DNA of 43,451 nucleotides, taken from NCBI GenBank assembly GCA_000739535.1, contig DF820465.1, positions 620,035-663,485 of the forward strand, read 5' to 3'. This DNA comes from Candidatus Vecturithrix granuli. Its GTDB lineage: Bacteria; Moduliflexota; Moduliflexia; Moduliflexales; Moduliflexaceae. This document shows positions 24,976 to 34,291 of this stretch, one piece after another. The notes under the pieces are model-generated. The model was not told the origin of the DNA and searched no databases. It was given only the letters and a program-made list of their open reading frames with translations. Made by a program: the position numbers and the translations under genes. How positions within the stretch are numbered: the first letter of the stretch is position 1; every line of letters begins with the position of its first letter.

Positions 24976-25473
24976 ATGCAAACAATTTGGGCACCCTGGA
25001 GAATAACATATATTTTGGGCGAGAAAGAGCAAGGCTGTTTTTTGTGTCAAAAAGCAAGGCAGGTTGAGCATGATGAGGAGAATTTTGTGTTATGCCGCAA
25101 AACCCATGCGTTTGTCTTGATGAATGTGTACCCGTATAACAATGGTCATCTCATGATCGCACCCTATGCCCATGTTTCCAGTCTAACAGAATTACATCAC
25201 GATCAATTGGAAGATATGTTCCGATTAGCCCAACTTTGTGAATCTGTGTTAACGCTGGTCATGCAGCCTGAAGGCTTCAATATTGGCATAAACCTGGGAA
25301 AAGTTGCCGGGGCTGGTGTTGAGGATCATCTGCACCTTCATATTGTGCCTAGATGGAATGGGGATACCAATTATATGACCACGATCGCAGATACCCGCAT
25401 CATTCCTCAACAACTCGAAGAGACCTGTGAATTATTGCGATCGGGTTTTCTTTTGGAACAAAAAGAGCGATGA
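24976..25473 (+). CDS. HIT-family nucleotide hydrolase/transferase
   Basis: 165 residues. The histidine triad is visible as DHLHLHIVPRW; an upstream CxxC pair (CFLC) and NNGHLMIAPYAHVSSL are typical of the Ap4A-phosphorylase-like HIT branch. These act on dinucleoside polyphosphates or adenosine-phosphoramidates. The stop codon overlaps the lptC start (ATGATGA), so the genes are coupled. Confidence 0.88.
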   Translation: MQTIWAPWRITYILGEKEQGCFLCQKARQVEHDEENFVLCRKTHAFVLMNVYPYNNGHLMIAPYAHVSSLTELHHDQLEDMFRLAQLCESVLTLVMQPEGFNIGINLGKVAGAGVEDHLHLHIVPRWNGDTNYMTTIADTRIIPQQLEETCELLRSGFLLEQKER

Positions 25474-26108
25474 TGAATACGATGAATATAGCAAGAATTA
25501 AGCGGCTCCTTCTGATTATGATAGGAGGGATGACCACCTTAATGGTTTATTATATCTGGGCCTACAATCAGGAAAATCAAGGCGTGAAAATGAAGCCTCT
25601 TCTCCCGGAGAAGCTCGCATCCGATCCCGTGGTACCGGACGTCGTCGTCAACGATGTGGACCTGACTGAAATGTCTGTAGAGCGAATCTTATGGACCTTA
25701 CACGCCAAAGAAGCCCGGGTGTATAGTTCCCTGAAAGAAACTCGACTCAAGGCTGTTGAAGTACAATTTTTTGATGAATACGGGGAGAAAAGTTTATTTT
25801 TAACGAGTGACCGAGGAATGAAAGATGATAAAACTGGGAATATTACCGCTTCTGGCAATGTCGTGGTCATATCGTTACAAAAAGAGGCGACCTTGAAAAC
25901 GAATGAGTTAATTTATGATGCCAATCAAAAAATGATCCGGACGGATGAACAGGAGCATGTGATTATTGAACAAGGCGATATTATTACCAGTGGATACGGA
26001 TTAGAATCGGATCTGAGTTTGTCAAAACCGCGAATTTTACGAGATGTCACGACATCTTTCGCTGTTCAACAGGAAGTCAAACAAGGAGGTGACAGTACGC
26101 AGGAATGA
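25470..26108 (+). CDS. lptC: LPS export protein LptC-like
   Basis: 212 residues. One N-terminal membrane helix (RLLLIMIGGMTTLMVYYIWAY) followed by a beta-rich periplasmic LptC/OstA-like domain (MSVERILWTLHAKEARVYS; KTGNITASGNVVV; ITSGYGLESDLSL). LptC joins the inner-membrane LptBFG transporter to LptA. It overlaps the HIT gene by four bases and is followed by lptA and lptB. Low conservation is normal for this family; context makes the call firm. Confidence 0.88.
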   Translation: MMNTMNIARIKRLLLIMIGGMTTLMVYYIWAYNQENQGVKMKPLLPEKLASDPVVPDVVVNDVDLTEMSVERILWTLHAKEARVYSSLKETRLKAVEVQFFDEYGEKSLFLTSDRGMKDDKTGNITASGNVVVISLQKEATLKTNELIYDANQKMIRTDEQEHVIIEQGDIITSGYGLESDLSLSKPRILRDVTTSFAVQQEVKQGGDSTQE

Positions 26109-26144
26109 ACCACTGGCAATGGTCTTTCTGTGATCTGTCTGCTT

Positions 26145-27293
26145 ATGCTTATGAGAAGAGGGGAAAAAAATTTTCACGTATATACTGCGTGGATCTGCTG
26201 TGTTATGATGTCTCTCCTGATCCTGATTGGCATTGCCAATTCCTCTGAAGCGCAAACTTCAGCCAAATCTGGCTCTCAAACCCCATCGGTCATGTCACAA
26301 CAGGGAGGGGAGGGGGTCATTACGGGTGATGGCTTTCAGATGGATCTTGACAAAAAAGTGGTCACGTATTTTGGCAATGTCAAAGTTGTTCAAGGGGAAA
26401 GTACGCTGTTTTGCGATAAATTAGATGCGTTTTACGAAGAGTTTGGAAAATGGAAACGCATTGTGACCACCGGAAATGTGCGATTAGTGGATGGAACATT
26501 CACGGCTACTGGTGAGGAAGGAATCTTTCATCCCGAAGAACAAAAAGTCGAAATTAATACCCATGCAAAAGTTTGGCAAGAGAATAATACCATTACCGCC
26601 CATCAAATTGTCGCCTACATTGCGCAGGATGTGGTTGAGGGGTATGGCAGTGAGGCGACTGAACGAGTCATTATGACAGTCTATTCAGGAGAAAGTATGA
26701 GTTTGCCGGGAACAACGCCTACACCCCGTGAAAGTCCCCGGGCTGAAGAGGAAAGCAAGTCGCCAATCGTGATTATTTCCGATACCTTAAAATTTGAAAA
26801 CCTGAAGCAACTTGCCAGATTTACGGGAAATGTTATTGCCACGCAAGATAAAGATGAAATCAAAGCCGATGAAATGCTCGTGTATCTGACCAAAACAGAG
26901 CAAAATCAGAACGATGTGGAGCGACTTGAATTATACCGCAATGTGAATATCACGCATGAGCAGTATTTAATCCTCGGGGATACCGGCGTGTATCACAAAG
27001 TAGAACAATACGCTGTGGTCACAGGCACAAAACAAGAATTTGCCCGGATTGTAGATACAACCGATAATATCACCCGGATTCAAGCCTATGGCATCCGTTA
27101 CAATTTAGCGAATAATCTGGTTGAATCTATCCCGCTGGAAGGGTCGCGGGTCGAAACAAAATTTGAAACAGAGCAAGGCGGATCCTTGTTGGTGCCGGAA
27201 AAGCCAGTCTCAACGCCAACCCCTGAGGCGACTCCGCAAGTGAATCGGGAAAAAATGCCGTCTGCCACAGTGTATCCTGGCAAAAAGAAATGA
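26145..27293 (+). CDS. lptA: LptA/OstA-family LPS periplasmic bridge protein
   Basis: About 382 residues, roughly twice the length of E. coli LptA. A signal-type segment (ICCVMMSLLILIGIA) precedes two OstA-like repeats: one around GFQMDLDKKVVTYFGNVKV ... NVRLVDGTFTATGEEG, the other around SDTLKFENLKQLARFTGNVI ... MLVYL. The C terminus is a low-complexity Pro/Thr tail. LptA forms the bridge that carries LPS across the periplasm. The start is unclear (GTG 26130, ATG 26145 or 26151), none with a good ribosome site. No lptD here. Confidence 0.85.
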   Translation: MLMRRGEKNFHVYTAWICCVMMSLLILIGIANSSEAQTSAKSGSQTPSVMSQQGGEGVITGDGFQMDLDKKVVTYFGNVKVVQGESTLFCDKLDAFYEEFGKWKRIVTTGNVRLVDGTFTATGEEGIFHPEEQKVEINTHAKVWQENNTITAHQIVAYIAQDVVEGYGSEATERVIMTVYSGESMSLPGTTPTPRESPRAEEESKSPIVIISDTLKFENLKQLARFTGNVIATQDKDEIKADEMLVYLTKTEQNQNDVERLELYRNVNITHEQYLILGDTGVYHKVEQYAVVTGTKQEFARIVDTTDNITRIQAYGIRYNLANNLVESIPLEGSRVETKFETEQGGSLLVPEKPVSTPTPEATPQVNREKMPSATVYPGKKK

Positions 27294-27345
27294 GAGCCTG
27301 CGGCGAAAATGATCTTGGTAGCAGCAGCTTTTGGAAAAGAGGCTT

Positions 27346-28068
27346 ATGGCGAGACTGATTGCCCAGAATTTACAAAAAACCTATAAAGGTCGTTCAGTAG
27401 TGAACGATGTGAGTTTTTACATCGACCAGGGAGAAGTTGTTGGTCTGCTCGGACCGAATGGGGCCGGGAAAACCACAACATTTTACATGGTCATCGGACT
27501 GGTAACGCCTGAACAAGGCACAATTCTCCTGGAACAGGAAGATATTACCCATGATCCGATGTATGCTCGTGCGCGGAAAGGCTTGAGTTATTTACCTCAG
27601 GAACCTTCAGCGTTCCGAAAACTCACAGTGCAGGAAAATATCATGGCGATCCTGGAAACCCTTGATATTCCGGTTTATGAACGCGAACAGCGTCTGGAAG
27701 AACTGTTAGATGATTTGGATATTTCGCATTTGAGAAAAAGCAAGGCTTATACCCTGTCTGGCGGAGAACGGCGACGCTTAGAAATCACGCGGGCTCTGGT
27801 GAGTTCCCCGTCATTTATCTTGTTGGACGAACCCTTTGCCGGAATTGATCCCAAAGCAATTGCGGATATCCAGAAAATTATTGACCGGTTAGCACAAAAA
27901 AATATCGGAATCCTGATCACCGATCATAATGTGCGCGAAACCCTGAAAAGTACAGATCGAGCATATATTATGACCGATGGTGAAATTCGATTTTCCGGTA
28001 CCCCGATCGAATTGGCATTTAATGAAAAGGCGAAAGAACTGTATCTTGGAGAAGGATTTATGTTATAA
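27346..28068 (+). CDS. lptB: LPS export ABC ATPase LptB
   Basis: About 240 residues, full-length LptB: Walker [11 protein letters not shown]-loop [17 protein letters not shown] (the LptB-specific segment), signature [10 protein letters not shown], Walker [14 protein letters not shown] and switch His in [10 protein letters not shown]. It powers LPS extraction from the inner membrane. ATG at 27346 follows AGAGG; a TTG 15 bases earlier is less likely. Confidence 0.95.
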
Positions 28069-28121: not shown

Positions 28122-30434
28122 ATGAATGTTGATGCACGCATAAACCTCAATCTCTCTCAGCGTCTCGTTATGACGCCAATGTTGCAACAAGCGATTAAAC
28201 TGCTCCAAATGTCGCGGTTAGAGCTTGTCGATTTGGTGAAACAAGAGATGCTAGAGAATCCGGTGCTTGAGGAATTGGAGGAGGGGCTAGAATCGCAGCC
28301 TGAGCGTCAAGACGAGCAAGAAGGCTATATGAATACTGACGACTCTCTCAATGATGATGCTTGGCAAATGCCGCAGGATAACACCTCTGTCTCCGAACCT
28401 CTCCAGGAAGAACGCGGGCGGCAGCAACAAGATTTTCCCGTGAATTGGGAAGAATATTTCCATGATAACCCTTCAACGTTAGGGTATTATGGGGAATATG
28501 AACCCGACGAAGGGTCCCCATCCTATGATAGTTTACTCAAACAGCCATTATCCCTTTCGGAACACCTGCTGTGGCAATTACAAATGTCTCAGGTGCCTGA
28601 ACGTCCCATGAAGATCGGTCGATTTCTGATCGGTCAGATTGATGATAATGGCTATCTTAACTGCGATGACCTGCAAGAAAGTTCTATAGTAAACAGACAG
28701 GCAACGAGTCTGAGATCTAACGACCTCAAAGAATATCGTGGGGCTTTGATTACTGGCTTGTGTCAAAAAATTCATGCTGAGTTTGAACGAGATTATATGA
28801 TATCATCTTTACACATTCCTGGTAAGGAAGGGATGTTAGCGCGCGTGCTCATCCAGGAATACTATGAAGACCTTATTAGTGCACGGTATGAAGAACTCGT
28901 TCGTCGTTTACAACATTTCAGTTTAGAAGAACTTGAAACCATCGCTAAGTATCTGTGTGAGATTCCTCTGGTAGAGATGGAACAATTCACAGGGATTCCC
29001 GCCTCAGAAATTACACAGGGGTTTGAGCACATTTGGAAGATCTGTACTGAGTTGCAACAAATCATCGAAGGACACTTTCATCTGTTATTAGGACAGGATT
29101 ATGCAACAAAGCTCGAAAAACTCGGGCTGTCTCCTGAAGAATTTTACCTGGTCGAATATTTGCTCTTACAACTTTCAGCCGAGGAAATTGCCTATATTGC
29201 CAGTCGAGAAAACACGACAAAAGCTACAAAATACGAAAAAGAGGTTGAGGAGTTTCTTGGCAGGCTCCAACAATCATACTCCCATATTGACCAATTAAAG
29301 TCGCATCGATACTTTTTGGTGCAATTATATACGGTTGGAATTGAATTTATTGCTGACAAGATTGTAACAGATCATGGGGGCCGATTGCAGAAGCTGGGGG
29401 TGAAGCTCTTGCATGTCACAGAAGCAGATGTGGCCCAGATTGCCAAACAGGTGTCAGCGCAGCTCGACGGCTTTTATCAGACAGTCCAAGAGGTTTCACC
29501 GAAAGAAGTTGAGCATATTCTCCAACACATTCAGACGTTTACTCCATCAGGCGTTGGTGCGCGCGATCTGAACGAATGTTTGCTGATCCAGGCCAGAAAC
29601 CTTGGGCTTCAAGAAACCCCAGTCGAGGCCATTATTTCCGATTATCTTGAAGAATTGAATCAACAACAGTATCAAAAAATTGCCGATCACCTTGAAATTT
29701 CTGTTGAAGACGTTGAGGCAATGCATAAAATTATCGTAAATATGTCACCTCGCCCCGGGGCAGATTTTAGCTATGAGCGTCCTGAATACATCGTCCCGGA
29801 TATTTACGTCTATAAAGTTGACGAAGAATATGAAGTGGTGTTAAATGATGATGATCTGCCAAATTTACGCATTAACCCGCTATACCGGAAATATTTGACC
29901 GGTAATAATCATGATGTACCGTCGACGACAAAACAATATGTTGATCAAAAGCTTCGTTCTGCGATGTGGTTTATTCGAAGTGTTGAACAACGGAAACGGA
30001 CAATTTATAAAGTCGGGAAAAGTATCGTCAAATTTCAAAAAGAATTTCTTGAACATGGCGTATCACACCTGAAACCCCTGGTGTTACGAGATGTCGCCGA
30101 TGATATTGCGATGCACGAATCAACGGTGAGTCGCGTAACGACGAATAAATATATTCACACGCCCCAGGGGGTTTTTGAATTGAAATTTTTCTTTCATAGT
30201 GGTTTAGAAAGTACTTCGGGCGATGATGTCTCATCAATTGCGATTAAAGACAAAATTCGACAAATGATCGAAGAAGAAGATCCTGAACATCCGTTGAGCG
30301 ATAAAACGATCGAAAAAAAGATGACGGCCGCTGGTGTCGCTATCGCGCGGCGAACGATAGCAAAATACCGCGAAGAACTCGATATTCCGTCGTCAATTCA
30401 ACGTAAGCGGAAAAGAACGAGTAATGGACAATGA
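28122..30434 (+). CDS. rpoN: RNA polymerase sigma-54 factor with a large internal insertion
   Basis: 770 residues against about 480 in typical RpoN. Region I (NLSQRLVMTPMLQQAIKLLQ) binds activators; the core-binding region begins at about 145 (SLSEHLLWQLQ ... IDDNGYL at 173-179). In known RpoN about 13-25 residues follow before the next conserved block, but here VSPKEVEHILQHIQTFTPSGVGARDL starts only at 458. The HTH (RDVADDIAMHESTVSR, about 656-671) and the RpoN box (ARRTIAKYRE, about 742-751) are intact, so the protein should recognise -24/-12 promoters. The extra part is uninterrupted and mostly helical. Placement after lptB and before hpf is the classic one. Confidence 0.95.
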   Translation: MNVDARINLNLSQRLVMTPMLQQAIKLLQMSRLELVDLVKQEMLENPVLEELEEGLESQPERQDEQEGYMNTDDSLNDDAWQMPQDNTSVSEPLQEERGRQQQDFPVNWEEYFHDNPSTLGYYGEYEPDEGSPSYDSLLKQPLSLSEHLLWQLQMSQVPERPMKIGRFLIGQIDDNGYLNCDDLQESSIVNRQATSLRSNDLKEYRGALITGLCQKIHAEFERDYMISSLHIPGKEGMLARVLIQEYYEDLISARYEELVRRLQHFSLEELETIAKYLCEIPLVEMEQFTGIPASEITQGFEHIWKICTELQQIIEGHFHLLLGQDYATKLEKLGLSPEEFYLVEYLLLQLSAEEIAYIASRENTTKATKYEKEVEEFLGRLQQSYSHIDQLKSHRYFLVQLYTVGIEFIADKIVTDHGGRLQKLGVKLLHVTEADVAQIAKQVSAQLDGFYQTVQEVSPKEVEHILQHIQTFTPSGVGARDLNECLLIQARNLGLQETPVEAIISDYLEELNQQQYQKIADHLEISVEDVEAMHKIIVNMSPRPGADFSYERPEYIVPDIYVYKVDEEYEVVLNDDDLPNLRINPLYRKYLTGNNHDVPSTTKQYVDQKLRSAMWFIRSVEQRKRTIYKVGKSIVKFQKEFLEHGVSHLKPLVLRDVADDIAMHESTVSRVTTNKYIHTPQGVFELKFFFHSGLESTSGDDVSSIAIKDKIRQMIEEEDPEHPLSDKTIEKKMTAAGVAIARRTIAKYREELDIPSSIQRKRKRTSNGQ
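28662..29486 (+). other. Insertion within RpoN core-binding region
   Basis: Codons about 181-455 of rpoN. In frame, no stops, rich in Leu/Glu/Gln helices (LVRRLQHFSLEELETIAKYL; FYLVEYLLLQLSAEEIAYIA). No similarity to the flanking sigma-54 domains that I can see and no catalytic motif. Composition resembles the flanking gene, so it is not an obvious recent mobile insertion. Confidence 0.75.
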
Positions 30435-30455: not shown

Positions 30456-30525
30456 AGTGACTAATGTGACAAGCAACGAAAGTTCAAAGTTCTTCAAACG
30501 TTCATCACTTGTCATGTTAGTCACT
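30456..30525. repeat. Inverted repeat upstream of hpf
   Basis: AGTGACTAATGTGACAAG (30456-30473) and CTTGTCATGTTAGTCACT (30508-30525) pair with one mismatch around a 34-base loop. It sits between the rpoN stop and the hpf ribosome site and could act as an attenuator or RNA-processing site. Confidence 0.65.
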
Positions 30526-30546
30526 TACAAACTAAGGAGGCATATT

Positions 30547-31086
30547 ATGCAAATTACAGTCACAGGTAGACACTTTGAAATCACCGACCCATTAAGACAG
30601 CATATTGAATCCAAACTGAATAAATTGGATCGTTACCTTGATGGAATTACCGATGTACATGTCGTCTTATCTGTTGAAAAACACCGTCATCTTGCCGAAA
30701 TTAATCTTCAGGCGAATGGCAGTTCGATTCGAGGAGTGGAAGAAAAACATGATATGTACTTAGCGGTTGATGCTGTGATTGAGAAACTCGAACGGCAAGT
30801 CAAGCGTCAGAAGGATAAAGATGCCGATCGTAAAGGACGGTTTGCTATTAAAAGCACAGATATGGTACCGACCGAAACCGTTGATGCAGAAGAGTTTAAA
30901 ACACCTCCTAAAGTCATCAGAACCCAACGGATGGCGATTAAGCCGATGTCTATTGATGAAGCCGCAATGCAATTGGGATTAGCAAAAGAAGATTTTCTCG
31001 CGTTTTTGAATTCGGAAACAAACCAGATGAATGTGATGTATAAACGACGCGATGGGAACTATGGGTTAATCGAACCTGAATTTTGA
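30547..31086 (+). CDS. hpf: Ribosome hibernation promoting factor, long form
   Basis: 179 residues from the ATG preceded by AAGGAGG. N-terminal S30AE domain (MQITVTGRHFEIT, SKLNKLDRYL, EKHDMYLAVDAVIEKLERQ) and a C-terminal dimerisation domain (MSIDEAAMQLGLAKEDFLAFLN ... MYKRRDGNYGLIEP). Long HPF joins two 70S ribosomes into inactive 100S dimers. Adjacent to rpoN, as in many Gram-negatives, though these usually have the short form. Confidence 0.93.
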   Translation: MQITVTGRHFEITDPLRQHIESKLNKLDRYLDGITDVHVVLSVEKHRHLAEINLQANGSSIRGVEEKHDMYLAVDAVIEKLERQVKRQKDKDADRKGRFAIKSTDMVPTETVDAEEFKTPPKVIRTQRMAIKPMSIDEAAMQLGLAKEDFLAFLNSETNQMNVMYKRRDGNYGLIEPEF

Positions 31087-31148
31087 GTTGTGGGTTTGGA
31101 GTTCAGAGTTCTGAAGAGCTCAGCACTCGAGACCGCGATAGGGAAATC

Positions 31149-31610
31149 ATGAAATTAACAGATATTCTTGCTGAATCGTCAATTGTCGCAGACTTACGAG
31201 CCAATAATAAAACAGAAGCTCTGGAAGTGCTGGTAGATGCGATGATCAAGAGTAATCCTGGCATTGAGAAACACACGATTCTGAAAGTGTTGTTGGATCG
31301 AGAAGAATTGGGAAGTACAGGCATTGGCGATGGCATTGCGATTCCGCATGGCAAAGTTCCTGATCTGCCTCAGATTATCTCAGGGTTCGGACTTTCGAAA
31401 ACGGGAATCGATTTCGACTCATTGGATGGGAAACCGGCATATTTATTCTTTTTACTGGTGGCTCCGGAAAATTCTGTGGGAACCCATTTAAAAATGCTTG
31501 CGAGAATTTCACGGATGCTCAAAAACACTGATTTTCGGAATAAATTGTTGCATGCCAACTCCCAGAAAGAGATTTACCAGATCATCTCTGAGGAAGACGC
31601 GAAATATTAA
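31149..31610 (+). CDS. ptsN: PTS EIIA, nitrogen/fructose type (PtsN-like)
   Basis: About 153 residues from ATG 31149 (AGGGAAATC upstream). Contains the phospho-acceptor His in IGDGIAIPHGKVP and the family helices (LTDILAESSIVADL, LVDAM, LLDREELGSTG). PtsN proteins accept phosphate through a PTS chain and control other proteins rather than import sugar. It lies between hpf and further PTS genes. Confidence 0.9.
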   Translation: MKLTDILAESSIVADLRANNKTEALEVLVDAMIKSNPGIEKHTILKVLLDREELGSTGIGDGIAIPHGKVPDLPQIISGFGLSKTGIDFDSLDGKPAYLFFLLVAPENSVGTHLKMLARISRMLKNTDFRNKLLHANSQKEIYQIISEEDAKY

Positions 31611-31668
31611 ACAAGGAGAGAAGAGAACGCCAAAGGAATAAGACCATTGATAAAAAGGTGTGCTGGAA

Positions 31669-31714
31669 GACACCGGGTTTGTGGCAATACCCCGGTGTCG
31701 TGCCAATCTTTTTT
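31669..31714 (+). terminator. Hairpin with T-run between ptsN and EIIA(Man)
   Basis: GACACCGGG and CCCCGGTGTC (31669-31699) followed by a TTTTTT run near 31708. It could partly end transcription inside the operon. Confidence 0.55.
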
Positions 31715-31768
31715 GTCCTGTTTAACAGAGACAGCCCTTGTTCCTTTTCCCTCTCTTATGTATCCGTC

Positions 31769-32179
31769 ATGGTAGGTGGAGTGATTGTATCACACGGCCA
31801 GTTAGGCAAAGAACTGATAGCCACTGCTGAGATGATTGTCGGGAAAATCCCCAATATTACCTCTGTATCAATTGATGTCACCAGCGATGTCGAAACCTCG
31901 CGTGAACAAATTCGGCAAGCGATTAAATCCGTGAATAATGGAGCAGGAGTGGTCATTTTTACTGATATGTTTGGGGGAACTCCCTCGAATATCAGTTTAT
32001 CCTTTTTAGATGAAGCGAACATTGAAGTGATTACCGGAGTGAATCTTGCGATGCTCCTCCAGCTTTCTACATCAGGTAAAGCAGAGCCGTTCCAACAAAT
32101 CGTCCAATCATTAAAACAGCGTGGGCAAGAGAATATTCATATTGCGAGTGAATTTTTGAAACAACGAGGCAAAAAATAA
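31769..32179 (+). CDS. PTS EIIA, mannose family
   Basis: About 136 residues. Phospho-acceptor His near the start in GVIVSHGQLGKEL; GVVIFTDMFGGTPSNIS is the conserved family block. No EIIB, EIIC or EIID genes of the mannose family are nearby, so it is probably regulatory (like DhaM- or PtsN-linked EIIA). The longer frame to 31658 runs across a hairpin and lacks conservation, so ATG 31769 is preferred although its ribosome site is poor. Confidence 0.85.
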   Translation: MVGGVIVSHGQLGKELIATAEMIVGKIPNITSVSIDVTSDVETSREQIRQAIKSVNNGAGVVIFTDMFGGTPSNISLSFLDEANIEVITGVNLAMLLQLSTSGKAEPFQQIVQSLKQRGQENIHIASEFLKQRGKK

Positions 32180-32200
32180 AAGGACGTGAAGAGAAAGGTC

Positions 32201-32473
32201 ATGGCGGAAATTCGAGTCGCGACGATTAAGAATGAATTAGGATTACATGCGCGGGCTGCCGCGCAGTTTGTGCAAACAGCAAATCAGTTTTGCGCTGAGA
32301 TTACTGTGCTGAAAGATGGCGAAGAAGTGAACGGTAAAAGTATTTTGAGTTTAATGATGCTTGCAGCCCCTATTGGTTCTGAAATTGTGCTCAAAGCCGA
32401 AGGAGAAGATGCCGTTGCGCTACTCGACAAGCTCATTCAACTCATTAATAATAAATTTGGGGAACCCAAATGA
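32201..32473 (+). CDS. ptsH: HPr phosphocarrier protein
   Basis: About 90 residues. The phospho-acceptor His lies in LGLHARAAAQFV, and the Ser corresponding to Ser46 of regulated HPr in NGKSILSLMML, so both phosphorylation sites are present. HPr passes phosphate from Enzyme I to EIIA proteins. A Ser46-type site implies an HPr kinase, but no hprK is in the window. ATG 32201 is chosen over GTG 32186 (AGAAAGG upstream). Confidence 0.92.
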   Translation: MAEIRVATIKNELGLHARAAAQFVQTANQFCAEITVLKDGEEVNGKSILSLMMLAAPIGSEIVLKAEGEDAVALLDKLIQLINNKFGEPK

Positions 32474-32527
32474 GCACAGGAGTCAATTGTCACTTGTCAC
32501 TTGTCAATTGACAATTGGTAAAGATTT

Positions 32528-34291
32528 TTGGAATTTCGAGGCATTGGCGTCTCATCAGGAATTGTGATCGGCAAAGTCTTTCGCCTGGAAAAAATCACCT
32601 ATGACATCAAACCGAACTGGGTGCGAGATACTGAGGTTGACGAGGAGGTCGCCCGTTTTCTGAAGGCGATTCATACCTCAAAGGAACAACTGCTGAGTAT
32701 CCGCAAAAAGATTGAGTCCTTAGCTGATACAGCACAGTTGCAGATTATTGACGCTCATCTGTTGATTTTGGATGATCAGATGTTGGTGAATGAAACCGTC
32801 GAGTACATCAAACGGCACCGGCTCTCGGCCGAATGGTCGTTAAAACGCGTGCTGGATAAAATCGGTGAACAGTTTGATAAGATGGGCGATGCGTATCTCA
32901 AAGAGCGCAAAGACGATCTGAGCCATATTGGCAATCGCATCTTTAACAATCTGTTTGGGTATGGACATACCAATCTGGCCGATTTAAAAGAAGATGTCAT
33001 CGTGGTAGCGCACGATCTTTCGCCTGCTGATACCGCCCAGATGCGCAAGGAACGGGTGATCGGGTTTGTCACCGAAATTGGCAGTAAAACCTCGCATACC
33101 GCGATTATGGCGCATTCTCTGGAAATTCCTGCCGTTGTAGGGGTCACTGGTATTTATGATGCGGTCACAACCGGAGAATCTTTGATTGTTGACGGGATCG
33201 ATGGCATTGTGCACGTTTCTCCTCCTCAGCCGACCTTTATCGCGTATCTCAATAAACAACGGCGCTATAAATACTATGAACGTGAATTATTGAAAATGAA
33301 AGATCTGCCAGCCATCACGACCGATCAGAAAAAAGTGACGCTGCTGGCGAATATTGAATTTATCGGCGAAGTCAAATCCGTACTTGAGCGGGGAGGTGAA
33401 GGCATTGGGTTGTATCGGACGGAATTTTTATATATGAATCGTTTTTATCCTCCGACAGAAGCCGAACATTTCAGAGTCTATAAAAGTCTGGCAGAACAGC
33501 TTTCAAGTTATCCTTCTATCATTCGCACGCTCGATCTTGGCGGCGATAAATTTATTTCGCAGCTCGACGTGTATGAAGAATTGAATCCGGTGTTAGGATT
33601 ACGTGCTATCCGTTTGTGTTTAGAGCATATTGATCTGTTTAAAACCCAATTGAGAGCGATCTTAAAAGCCAGCCATTACGGCAAATTGAAAATTATGTAT
33701 CCGATGATTTCCGGCCTCGATGAATTGCGCGAAGCGAATGCCGTATTGAAAGAAGTGATGGATGAACTCCGGAAAGCCAATATCCCCTTTGATGAAGAGA
33801 TTGAAGTGGGAATTATGATAGAAATTCCGTCAGCGGCGATTACCAGCGATATTCTTGCGGAAGAAGCCGATTTTTTCAGTATTGGCACCAATGATTTGAT
33901 TCAATATTCGATTGCGATTGATCGCGTGAATAAAAATGTGTCTTACTTGTATGAACCCCTGCACCCCGCCATTTTACGCCTGATTGCCAGGGTGATCGAA
34001 TCTGGCCATGCCAAAGGGATTTTGGTCGGCATGTGCGGCGAAATGGCGAGCGACCCGAAATATACATTGTTATTGCTGGGACTGGGGTTAGATCAATATA
34101 GCACCAATTCCGATGCGTTATTAAAAATTAAAAAAATCATCCGCTCCGTCTCGTATGCCGAAGCCAGGGAAATCGCCCAACAAGCCTTAACGTATTGCTC
34201 AGCCTCCGAAACAGAAAAGTTCATTACGAATTTGATGGAAGAACGCTTTCCTGATGTCTTCTGTTACTTTGGCGATGGCGACGAAGACTAA
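32528..34291 (+). CDS. ptsI: PTS Enzyme I
   Basis: 587 residues, normal for Enzyme I. Phospho-acceptor His190 in GSKTSHTAIMAHSLEIPAVVG; PEP-binding block LGLRAIRLCLEH; catalytic Cys in LVGMCGEMASDP. It takes phosphate from phosphoenolpyruvate and gives it to HPr. Start is TTG (MEFRGIGVSSGI is the family N terminus), with a weak ribosome site. A short palindromic TCAATTGTCA/TTGTCAATTGACAA region separates it from ptsH. Confidence 0.95.
   Translation: MEFRGIGVSSGIVIGKVFRLEKITYDIKPNWVRDTEVDEEVARFLKAIHTSKEQLLSIRKKIESLADTAQLQIIDAHLLILDDQMLVNETVEYIKRHRLSAEWSLKRVLDKIGEQFDKMGDAYLKERKDDLSHIGNRIFNNLFGYGHTNLADLKEDVIVVAHDLSPADTAQMRKERVIGFVTEIGSKTSHTAIMAHSLEIPAVVGVTGIYDAVTTGESLIVDGIDGIVHVSPPQPTFIAYLNKQRRYKYYERELLKMKDLPAITTDQKKVTLLANIEFIGEVKSVLERGGEGIGLYRTEFLYMNRFYPPTEAEHFRVYKSLAEQLSSYPSIIRTLDLGGDKFISQLDVYEELNPVLGLRAIRLCLEHIDLFKTQLRAILKASHYGKLKIMYPMISGLDELREANAVLKEVMDELRKANIPFDEEIEVGIMIEIPSAAITSDILAEEADFFSIGTNDLIQYSIAIDRVNKNVSYLYEPLHPAILRLIARVIESGHAKGILVGMCGEMASDPKYTLLLLGLGLDQYSTNSDALLKIKKIIRSVSYAEAREIAQQALTYCSASETEKFITNLMEERFPDVFCYFGDGDED

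What the first reader, a model, noticed from the sequence alone, without database searches (positions are those of the whole stretch)
28662..29486. Sigma-54 with an extra ~260-residue block in the core-binding region
Seen: IDDNGYL at residues 173-179 and TPSGVGARDL at about 474-483 of the same open frame, whereas in ordinary RpoN they are about 40 residues apart. The block is helical, Leu/Glu/Gln-rich, in frame and without stop. Regions I, HTH and RpoN box are intact. It may alter core binding or take another partner.
Basis: partly seen in the sequence, partly recalled or inferred. Interest (0 to 1): 0.7.

Follow-up and report, generated by a model that had tools for sequence, protein, structure and literature searches.

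The report
Sigma-54 with repeated core-binding units
In one family of uncultured filament-forming bacteria, the protein that steers RNA polymerase to certain genes carries a real, conserved 270-residue extra piece that looks like three worn copies of its own polymerase-gripping part.

Summary
The single rpoN of 'Candidatus Vecturithrix granuli' (KSB3/Moduliflexota) encodes a 770-aa sigma-54 with 266 extra residues between IDDNGYL and TPSGVGARDL. It is no assembly artefact: the independently assembled KSB3 genome of the same family carries the same insert (46% identity, no gap over 257 residues). The two other KSB3 genomes held (same order, other family) lack it.

The insert is probably not a foreign domain. 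Compared profile to profile with 21 ordinary RpoNs, it gives three successive, non-overlapping matches, all to the same ~90-residue helical unit of the core-binding domain (CBD). None of 200 shuffles reaches its best or summed score, and none of 81 natural segments shows even two such matches. AlphaFold2 places the same helix/turn pattern in copies A, B and (less exactly) C as in the native unit D. So the CBD probably holds four units: three degenerate, one canonical. Each copy alone is weak, and Pfam sees none.

Function is inferred. Units A-C probably form a helical arm at the RNA-exit side, where the CBD contacts beta flap, beta' zinc finger and alpha-CTD. The same family also has two divergent RNA polymerase alpha genes; the sister family has one.

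The parts
28122..30434 (+). rpoN, sigma-54, 770 aa; only rpoN match in the genome held
28140..28274 (+). activator-interacting domain (region I), residues 7-51
   Evidence: Pfam PF00309 E 4.7e-16; 92% identical to G001 over residues 1-50
28539..28661 (+). first helices of the CBD up to IDDNGYL (residues 140-180)
   Evidence: alignment with L003/L004; helices 145-155 and 160-171
28662..28967 (+). insert copy A (residues 181-282): variable junction 181-198, then CBD-unit-like
   Evidence: hhalign score 32.1, P 3.5e-4 to L003 169-277; helix pattern 234-280
28968..29177 (+). insert copy B (residues 283-352)
   Evidence: hhalign score 23.8, P 0.005 to L003 179-277; helices 283-290, 294-323, 327-334, 338-350
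29178..29486 (+). insert copy C (residues 353-455)
   Evidence: hhalign score 27.4, P 0.0022 to L003 178-286; helices 353-360, 365-385, 395-417, 423-429, 434-454
29487..29759 (+). native CBD unit D (residues 456-546), with the canonical TPSGVGARDLNECLLIQ motif
   Evidence: hhalign P 3.2e-26 to L003 186-282; Pfam CBD stretch 438-588
29934..30410 (+). DNA-binding domain (residues 605-763) with RpoN box 30345-30371
   Evidence: Pfam PF04552 E 2.6e-63; box position
25470..28068 (+). lptC, lptA-like (LptD_N domain) and lptB-like ABC gene upstream: usual rpoN neighbourhood
   Evidence: Pfam; syntenic in G001
30457..34291 (+). hpf (S30AE), ptsN (PTS_EIIA_2), EIIA-man gene, ptsI-like gene downstream
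   Evidence: Pfam; syntenic in G001

Best explanation
This is the only sigma-54 found in the organism and probably its working one. An ancestor of this KSB3 family enlarged the CBD by tandem copies of its own ~90-residue helical unit, inserted at the loop after the DDxGYL turn. Three copies (A, B, C) have since lost the signature FDPxGVxARDLxECLLIQ motif but keep helices and length, while the last, native copy (D) keeps the motif and presumably the ordinary grip on core RNA polymerase. Copies A-C then form a helical arm on the CBD, which in known structures sits over the RNA exit and touches beta flap, beta' zinc finger and alpha-CTD. The likeliest effect is a wider contact surface on RNA polymerase, giving firmer holoenzyme binding or slower sigma release, possibly through alpha-CTD. 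Shown: the insert, its conservation, its family-level distribution and the statistical resemblance to the CBD unit. Inferred: tandem duplication as the route, the arm's placement and its effect. Confidence is about 0.75 for the self-derived origin and 0.3 for the specific function; the figure below is for the whole.
For: (1) Three non-overlapping insert stretches match one CBD unit of the 21-sequence ordinary RpoN profile: scores 32.9, 29.7, 25.5. (2) 200 column shuffles: best 28.5, best sum of three 47.2 against 88.1; reversed insert 17.2. (3) Natural control: 81 segments from 59 other gene pairs of the same two genomes; best score 28.0, best sum 54.2, 0 of 81 with two or more unit matches of score >=20. 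(4) Each part cut out alone again has the unit as its top match, and A, B and C each align better with D than with each other. (5) Extra length 266 residues, near three units of ~90. (6) AlphaFold2, given no repeat information, shows helix-3-helix(8 or 9)-3-helix(12 or 13) in A, B and D at the positions predicted by the sequence alignment, C less exactly; block means of pLDDT are 80-93 over 211-380, lower (66-86) over 381-455. (7) Residues 199-455 are 46% identical between genera with no gap, pN 0.37 with saturated synonymous sites; native unit D 51%, pN 0.32. (8) The sigma-54 system is in use: 30 GAFTGA-coding sites in G000 and 15 in G001, reversed control 0. (9) The CBD's contacts and place at the RNA exit are from passages of PMC7057263 and PMC10786286.
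Against: Each single copy is weak (HHalign probability 7-37%). Pfam finds no CBD in the insert or its parts. The insert profile rests on two sequences. AlphaFold2 of the insert alone is poor (mean pLDDT 53) and its structure searches gave nothing; the full-length model has pTM 0.47. Copy A lacks a clear first half (one long helix instead). Nothing here tests where the arm lies or what it touches. With one gain on one branch, no functional correlation can be tested.
Confidence: 0.55

Rival explanations
1. The insert is an unrelated helical domain gained from elsewhere; its resemblance to the CBD unit is only that of one helical repeat to another.
For: No Pfam hit to the CBD in the insert; weak single-copy scores; the same loop takes unrelated insertions in other phyla.
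Against: Three matches to one unit, absent from 200 shuffles and 81 natural segments; helix and turn positions agree with the sequence register. The insert is found nowhere else in its own genome even at E 10, and a scan of 84,980 species' genomes gave only the relative's rpoN (two peptide patterns).
Confidence: 0.2
2. The arm does not touch RNA polymerase but docks a lineage-specific partner (regulator, RNA-binding or chaperone-like protein) near the RNA exit.
For: The copies lost the canonical CBD motif while keeping length and helices; KSB3 has very large regulatory networks (PMC4312070 passages).
Against: No partner gene is evident; the neighbourhood is the usual one.
Confidence: 0.3
3. 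The insert is a neutral by-product of duplication, tolerated because it lies in a permissive surface loop.
For: Insertions of about 30-107 residues occur at this loop in other phyla; the insert evolves faster than the DNA-binding domain (46% against 82% identity).
Against: No gap in 257 residues and constraint close to that of the native unit, whereas region II has gaps.
Confidence: 0.12
4. Assembly or frame artefact.
For: Metagenome bin; reads were not examined.
Against: Same insert in an independent assembly, KSB3 isolate DOLJORAL78_50_49, open frame in both, synteny intact.
Confidence: 0.01

Closest known systems
Canonical sigma-54 / RpoN (Pfam PF00309, PF04963, PF04552; E. coli-type chain 8f1k_M)
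   Same: AID, CBD and DBD present, RpoN box, usual lpt-rpoN-hpf-ptsN neighbourhood; model aligns to 8f1k_M with Z 21.5, 390 residues, rmsd 15.6 (domain arrangement differs)
   Different: 266 extra residues in the CBD; four CBD-unit-like segments instead of one
RpoN of the sister KSB3 family (G002, G003; 497 and 503 aa)
   Same: 54% identical to the window protein over aligned positions
   Different: no insert; one rpoA gene instead of two
RpoNs of other phyla with an insertion at the same loop (L093, L025, L120-L123)
   Same: same insertion site after the DDxGYL turn
   Different: roughly 30-107 residues, no match to the CBD unit
Catalogued RpoN domain architectures (PMC12316311, passages and table legend only)
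   Same: same three Pfam domains
   Different: [quoted passage not shown] KSB3 is not mentioned in that text
Lineage-specific insertions in other sigma factors, e.g. the non-conserved region of sigma-70 (recalled, from no call)
   Same: helical insertion in a sigma factor that keeps its core function
   Different: not described as copies of the factor's own core-binding unit (recalled)

Membership tests
Sigma-54 (RpoN) | N-terminal activator-interacting domain | tested here: met
   PF00309 E 4.7e-16
Sigma-54 (RpoN) | core-binding domain | tested here: met
   PF04963 E 3.7e-56, two stretches
Sigma-54 (RpoN) | DNA-binding domain with RpoN box | tested here: met
   PF04552 E 2.6e-63; ARRTIAKYR at 742-750
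Sigma-54 (RpoN) | NCBIfam equivalog rpoN_sigma above its cut-off | tested here: met
   TIGR02395 404.6 bits, cut-off 277.35; six narrower sigma-54 models fell short of their own cut-offs
Sigma-54 (RpoN) | activators with GAFTGA in the same genome | tested here: met
   30 sites, reversed control 0; PF00158 matches in all 4 genomes
Sigma-54 (RpoN) | binds core RNA polymerase and opens promoters only with an activator | not testable with these tools
   needs biochemistry
Insert segments A-C as Sigma54_CBD (PF04963) | match to the Pfam model | tested here: not met
   no CBD match for A, B, C or the whole insert
Insert segments A-C as CBD-unit derivatives | profile-profile similarity above chance to the CBD unit | tested here: met
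   as a set of three; single copies are weak
Insert segments A-C as CBD-unit derivatives | canonical FDPxGVxARDLxECLLIQ motif (expected of an intact CBD unit, not of a degenerate copy) | tested here: not met
   absent from A-C, present in D
Insert segments A-C as CBD-unit derivatives | same three-dimensional fold as the native unit | tested here: inconclusive
   helix pattern agrees in the full-length model; insert-only model too poor; coordinates not at hand

The most novel reading that the evidence does not exclude
RNA polymerase of this KSB3 family was rebuilt at two touching places. The alpha subunit split into two divergent paralogues (a likely alpha1-alpha2 heterodimer, as known in Francisella), and the sigma-54 CBD, which touches alpha-CTD, grew to four units. 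The arm of extra CBD units would read out one particular alpha, so that sigma-54 chooses between, or orients on, unlike alpha subunits: a core-polymerase-selective sigma factor.
Probability: 0.12. Interest if true: 0.8.

Novelty: new variant of a known kind. Interest (0 to 1): 0.58.

Why it matters
RpoN architecture is otherwise very uniform, and its CBD blocks the RNA exit, so its size bears on how sigma-54 holds and leaves the polymerase. A natural sigma-54 whose core-binding part was multiplied gives a direct test of what the CBD does in holoenzyme stability and promoter escape. The two alpha genes in the same family add a testable idea about co-evolution inside RNA polymerase.

Tried and rejected
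Assembly artefact: rejected, since an independent genome carries the insert. A domain found elsewhere in the genome: the insert has no second match in its own genome up to E 10. Known domain by Pfam: only sub-threshold chance names. Phage origin: two scans of viral contigs, with the RpoN alignment and the insert alignment, found no relative. A recoding or RNA structure at the junction: z-score 0.40, nothing. Structure of the insert alone: mean pLDDT 53; Foldseek and VIA-align gave no match above the background, so nothing is concluded from that, and families not listed there are not excluded. Partner changes in RNA polymerase: beta has one 17-residue insertion shared by G000 and G001 only; beta' lacks stretches of 21, 13, 26 and 34 residues that G002 and G003 have; none could be placed against the CBD. 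Strict -24/-12 promoter pattern: 1 or 2 exact sites per genome, uninformative, and no excess in the window. Similar insertions elsewhere: (240 of 289 genomes matched; not all matches are listed) I followed four listed genomes whose match starts only at query residue 173-180 (G083, G124, G209, G247), plus G042 and G056 noted; none of the six is CBD-like. A seventh, G185 (L124, a fragment), was fetched but not examined. These insertions were tested as single sequences cut by a fixed rule, a weaker test than for the window. Literature: full-text searches listed no paper on a repeated sigma-54 core-binding domain; subscription journals are mostly not held. PMC4312070 holds no mention of sigma or RpoN in its main text.

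Rows dropped: the ordinary RpoN profile holds 21 of the 28 loci L003-L030; seven (L016, L017, L019, L021, L026, L029, L030) fell out of an ORF filter. The AlphaFold alignment holds 19 of the 25 viral-contig loci with an RpoN match; six (L037, L042, L043, L048, L055, L058) were left out as near-copies or fragments. The natural control left out 1 of 60 pairs, rpoN itself.

Full report
What is there. The window's only rpoN is the open frame 28122-30434 on the + strand, 770 residues. Pfam recognises the activator-interacting domain, the CBD in two stretches and the DNA-binding domain, and NCBIfam's rpoN_sigma model scores 404.6 bits against a cut-off of 277.35. IDDNGYL starts at 173 and TPSGVGARDL at 474; in L003, a same-order relative, the two motifs start 35 residues apart against 301 here, so 266 residues are extra. 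The neighbourhood is the usual one: lptC, an LptA/LptD_N gene and an ABC gene upstream, then hpf, ptsN, an EIIA-man gene and a ptsI-like gene, syntenic in the relative.

Whose genome. The genome held has 8,384,694 bases in 21 contigs. These are the figures given for 'Candidatus Vecturithrix granuli' UASB270 in Table 1 of PMC4312070 (passages read), a filament of candidate phylum KSB3 from a wastewater reactor, average coverage 38. The relative G001 is KSB3 bacterium DOLJORAL78_50_49, by the matching contig of 248,493 bases.

It is real and lineage-specific. Of the 4 genomes of the phylum held, the two of this family (G000, G001) have the insert and the two of the sister family (G002, G003) do not. 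Between G000 and G001, residues 199-455 are 46% identical with no gap and pN 0.37, while synonymous sites are saturated (pS 0.83); the native unit 456-546 is 51% identical with pN 0.32, the DNA-binding part 82%. Only the first 18 residues of the insert are unalignable (6% identity). A scan of genome contigs with the insert alignment gave that one relative only; the scan used two peptide patterns, so diverged copies could be missed, and records near the window's own genome may be left out.

What it is made of. I aligned 21 ordinary RpoNs, without the two insert-bearing ones, and compared the two-sequence insert profile with theirs. Three successive stretches of the insert (43-115, 132-173, 183-267) matched the same region of the ordinary protein (L003 217-289, 235-277, 184-275) with scores 32.9, 25.5 and 29.7. 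Shuffling the insert's columns 200 times gave at most 28.5 for the best match and 47.2 for the sum of three, against 88.1; the reversed insert gave 17.2. As a natural control I took 59 other gene pairs from the same two genomes, cut into 81 segments: best score 28.0, best sum 54.2; 3 of 81 had one match of score 20 or more to the CBD unit and none had two. Cut apart, each of A, B and C has this unit as its best match (P 3.5e-4, 0.005, 0.0022), and each aligns better with the native unit D than with the other copies. HMMER's profile of the unit also finds three stretches in the G000 insert, only the first with a good domain score, and two weak ones in the G001 insert. Against this: single copies are weak (probability 7-37%), Pfam sees no CBD in them, and copies A-C have lost the FDPxGVxARDL motif.

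Structure. AlphaFold2 on the full protein with 21 aligned sequences, only two of them covering the insert, gave block means of pLDDT of 80-93 over residues 211-380 and 66-86 over 381-455, with pTM 0.47. Laid out in the register that the sequence comparison had given, the last three helices of each unit agree: D has helix, 1, 5, 3, 8, 3, 12; A has helix, 1, 5, 3, 9, 3, 13; B has helix, 3, 8, 3, 13; C has helix, 5, 7, 4, then a longer helix. I could not superpose coordinates. The insert alone folded poorly and its searches were empty. The full model's best matches among solved chains are the known sigma-54s, best 8f1k_M with Z 21.5 over 390 residues at rmsd 15.6, meaning that domains agree but their arrangement does not.

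How unusual. Searched with an ordinary RpoN, 240 of 289 genomes matched (the list of matches is cut). I followed four listed genomes with late-starting matches and two noted; all six have an insertion at the same loop, roughly 30-107 residues, with no resemblance to the CBD unit. So the loop tolerates insertions, but the KSB3 insert is the largest seen and the only one of this kind. A survey of RpoN architectures (PMC12316311, passages) names no repeated CBD, and my searches for such a report listed none.

How it may work. In known structures the CBD sits where RNA leaves the polymerase and touches beta flap, beta' zinc finger and alpha-CTD (PMC10786286 and PMC7057263, passages). The insertion comes after the first CBD helices and before the unit that carries the canonical motif, so the extra units should form an arm on the CBD. 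The system is in active use: 30 GAFTGA-coding sites in this genome and 15 in the relative, with none for the reversed pattern. I think it most likely that the arm adds contacts to the polymerase; a docking place for another partner is nearly as likely. Neither is shown.

A second oddity in the same family. Both insert-bearing genomes have two rpoA genes: one in the ribosomal-protein operon, one elsewhere beside the same neighbours; the sister family has one. The paralogues are 42-45% identical overall and 76-77% in the C-terminal domain. Francisella is the known case of unlike alpha subunits forming a heterodimer (PMC3294249, abstract). Two or more rpoA matches are not rare as such: 12 of 192 genomes, fragments included. 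Since both changes may have happened once on the same branch, their coincidence is suggestive only.

Verdict. [quoted passage not shown] It is a new variant of a known kind, with an untested function.

Noticed in passing
G000:C15:107800-108702 and G000:C21:816609-817499 (L112, L113); G001:C47:12660-13565 and G001:C37:25478-26368 (L115, L114): Two divergent RNA polymerase alpha genes (42-45% identical) in both genomes of this KSB3 family, one in the rpsD-rplQ operon and one elsewhere; the sister family has one. Possible alpha heterodimer as in Francisella.
   Followed up: partly
L096/L097 against L094/L095 (rpoB): A 17-residue acidic insertion in beta shared by the two insert-bearing genomes only.
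   Followed up: no
L116/L117 against L118/L119 (rpoC): Stretches of 21, 13, 26 and 34 residues in beta' present in the sister family and missing in this one.
   Followed up: no
L093, L025, L120-L123: RpoNs of other phyla carry unrelated insertions of roughly 30-107 residues at the same CBD loop, so the loop is permissive; the longest, in L093, is not visibly low-complexity and may be a small domain.
   Followed up: partly
L002 (G001 RpoN), just before the insert: The otherwise conserved DDxGYL turn is changed to GDDAYI in the relative.
   Followed up: no
L035-L060 (IMG/VR contigs): 25 of 26 contigs classed as viral that match an RpoN-box pattern encode an RpoN, many about 435 aa with a short CBD region; host contamination or real viral carriage was not examined.
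   Followed up: no
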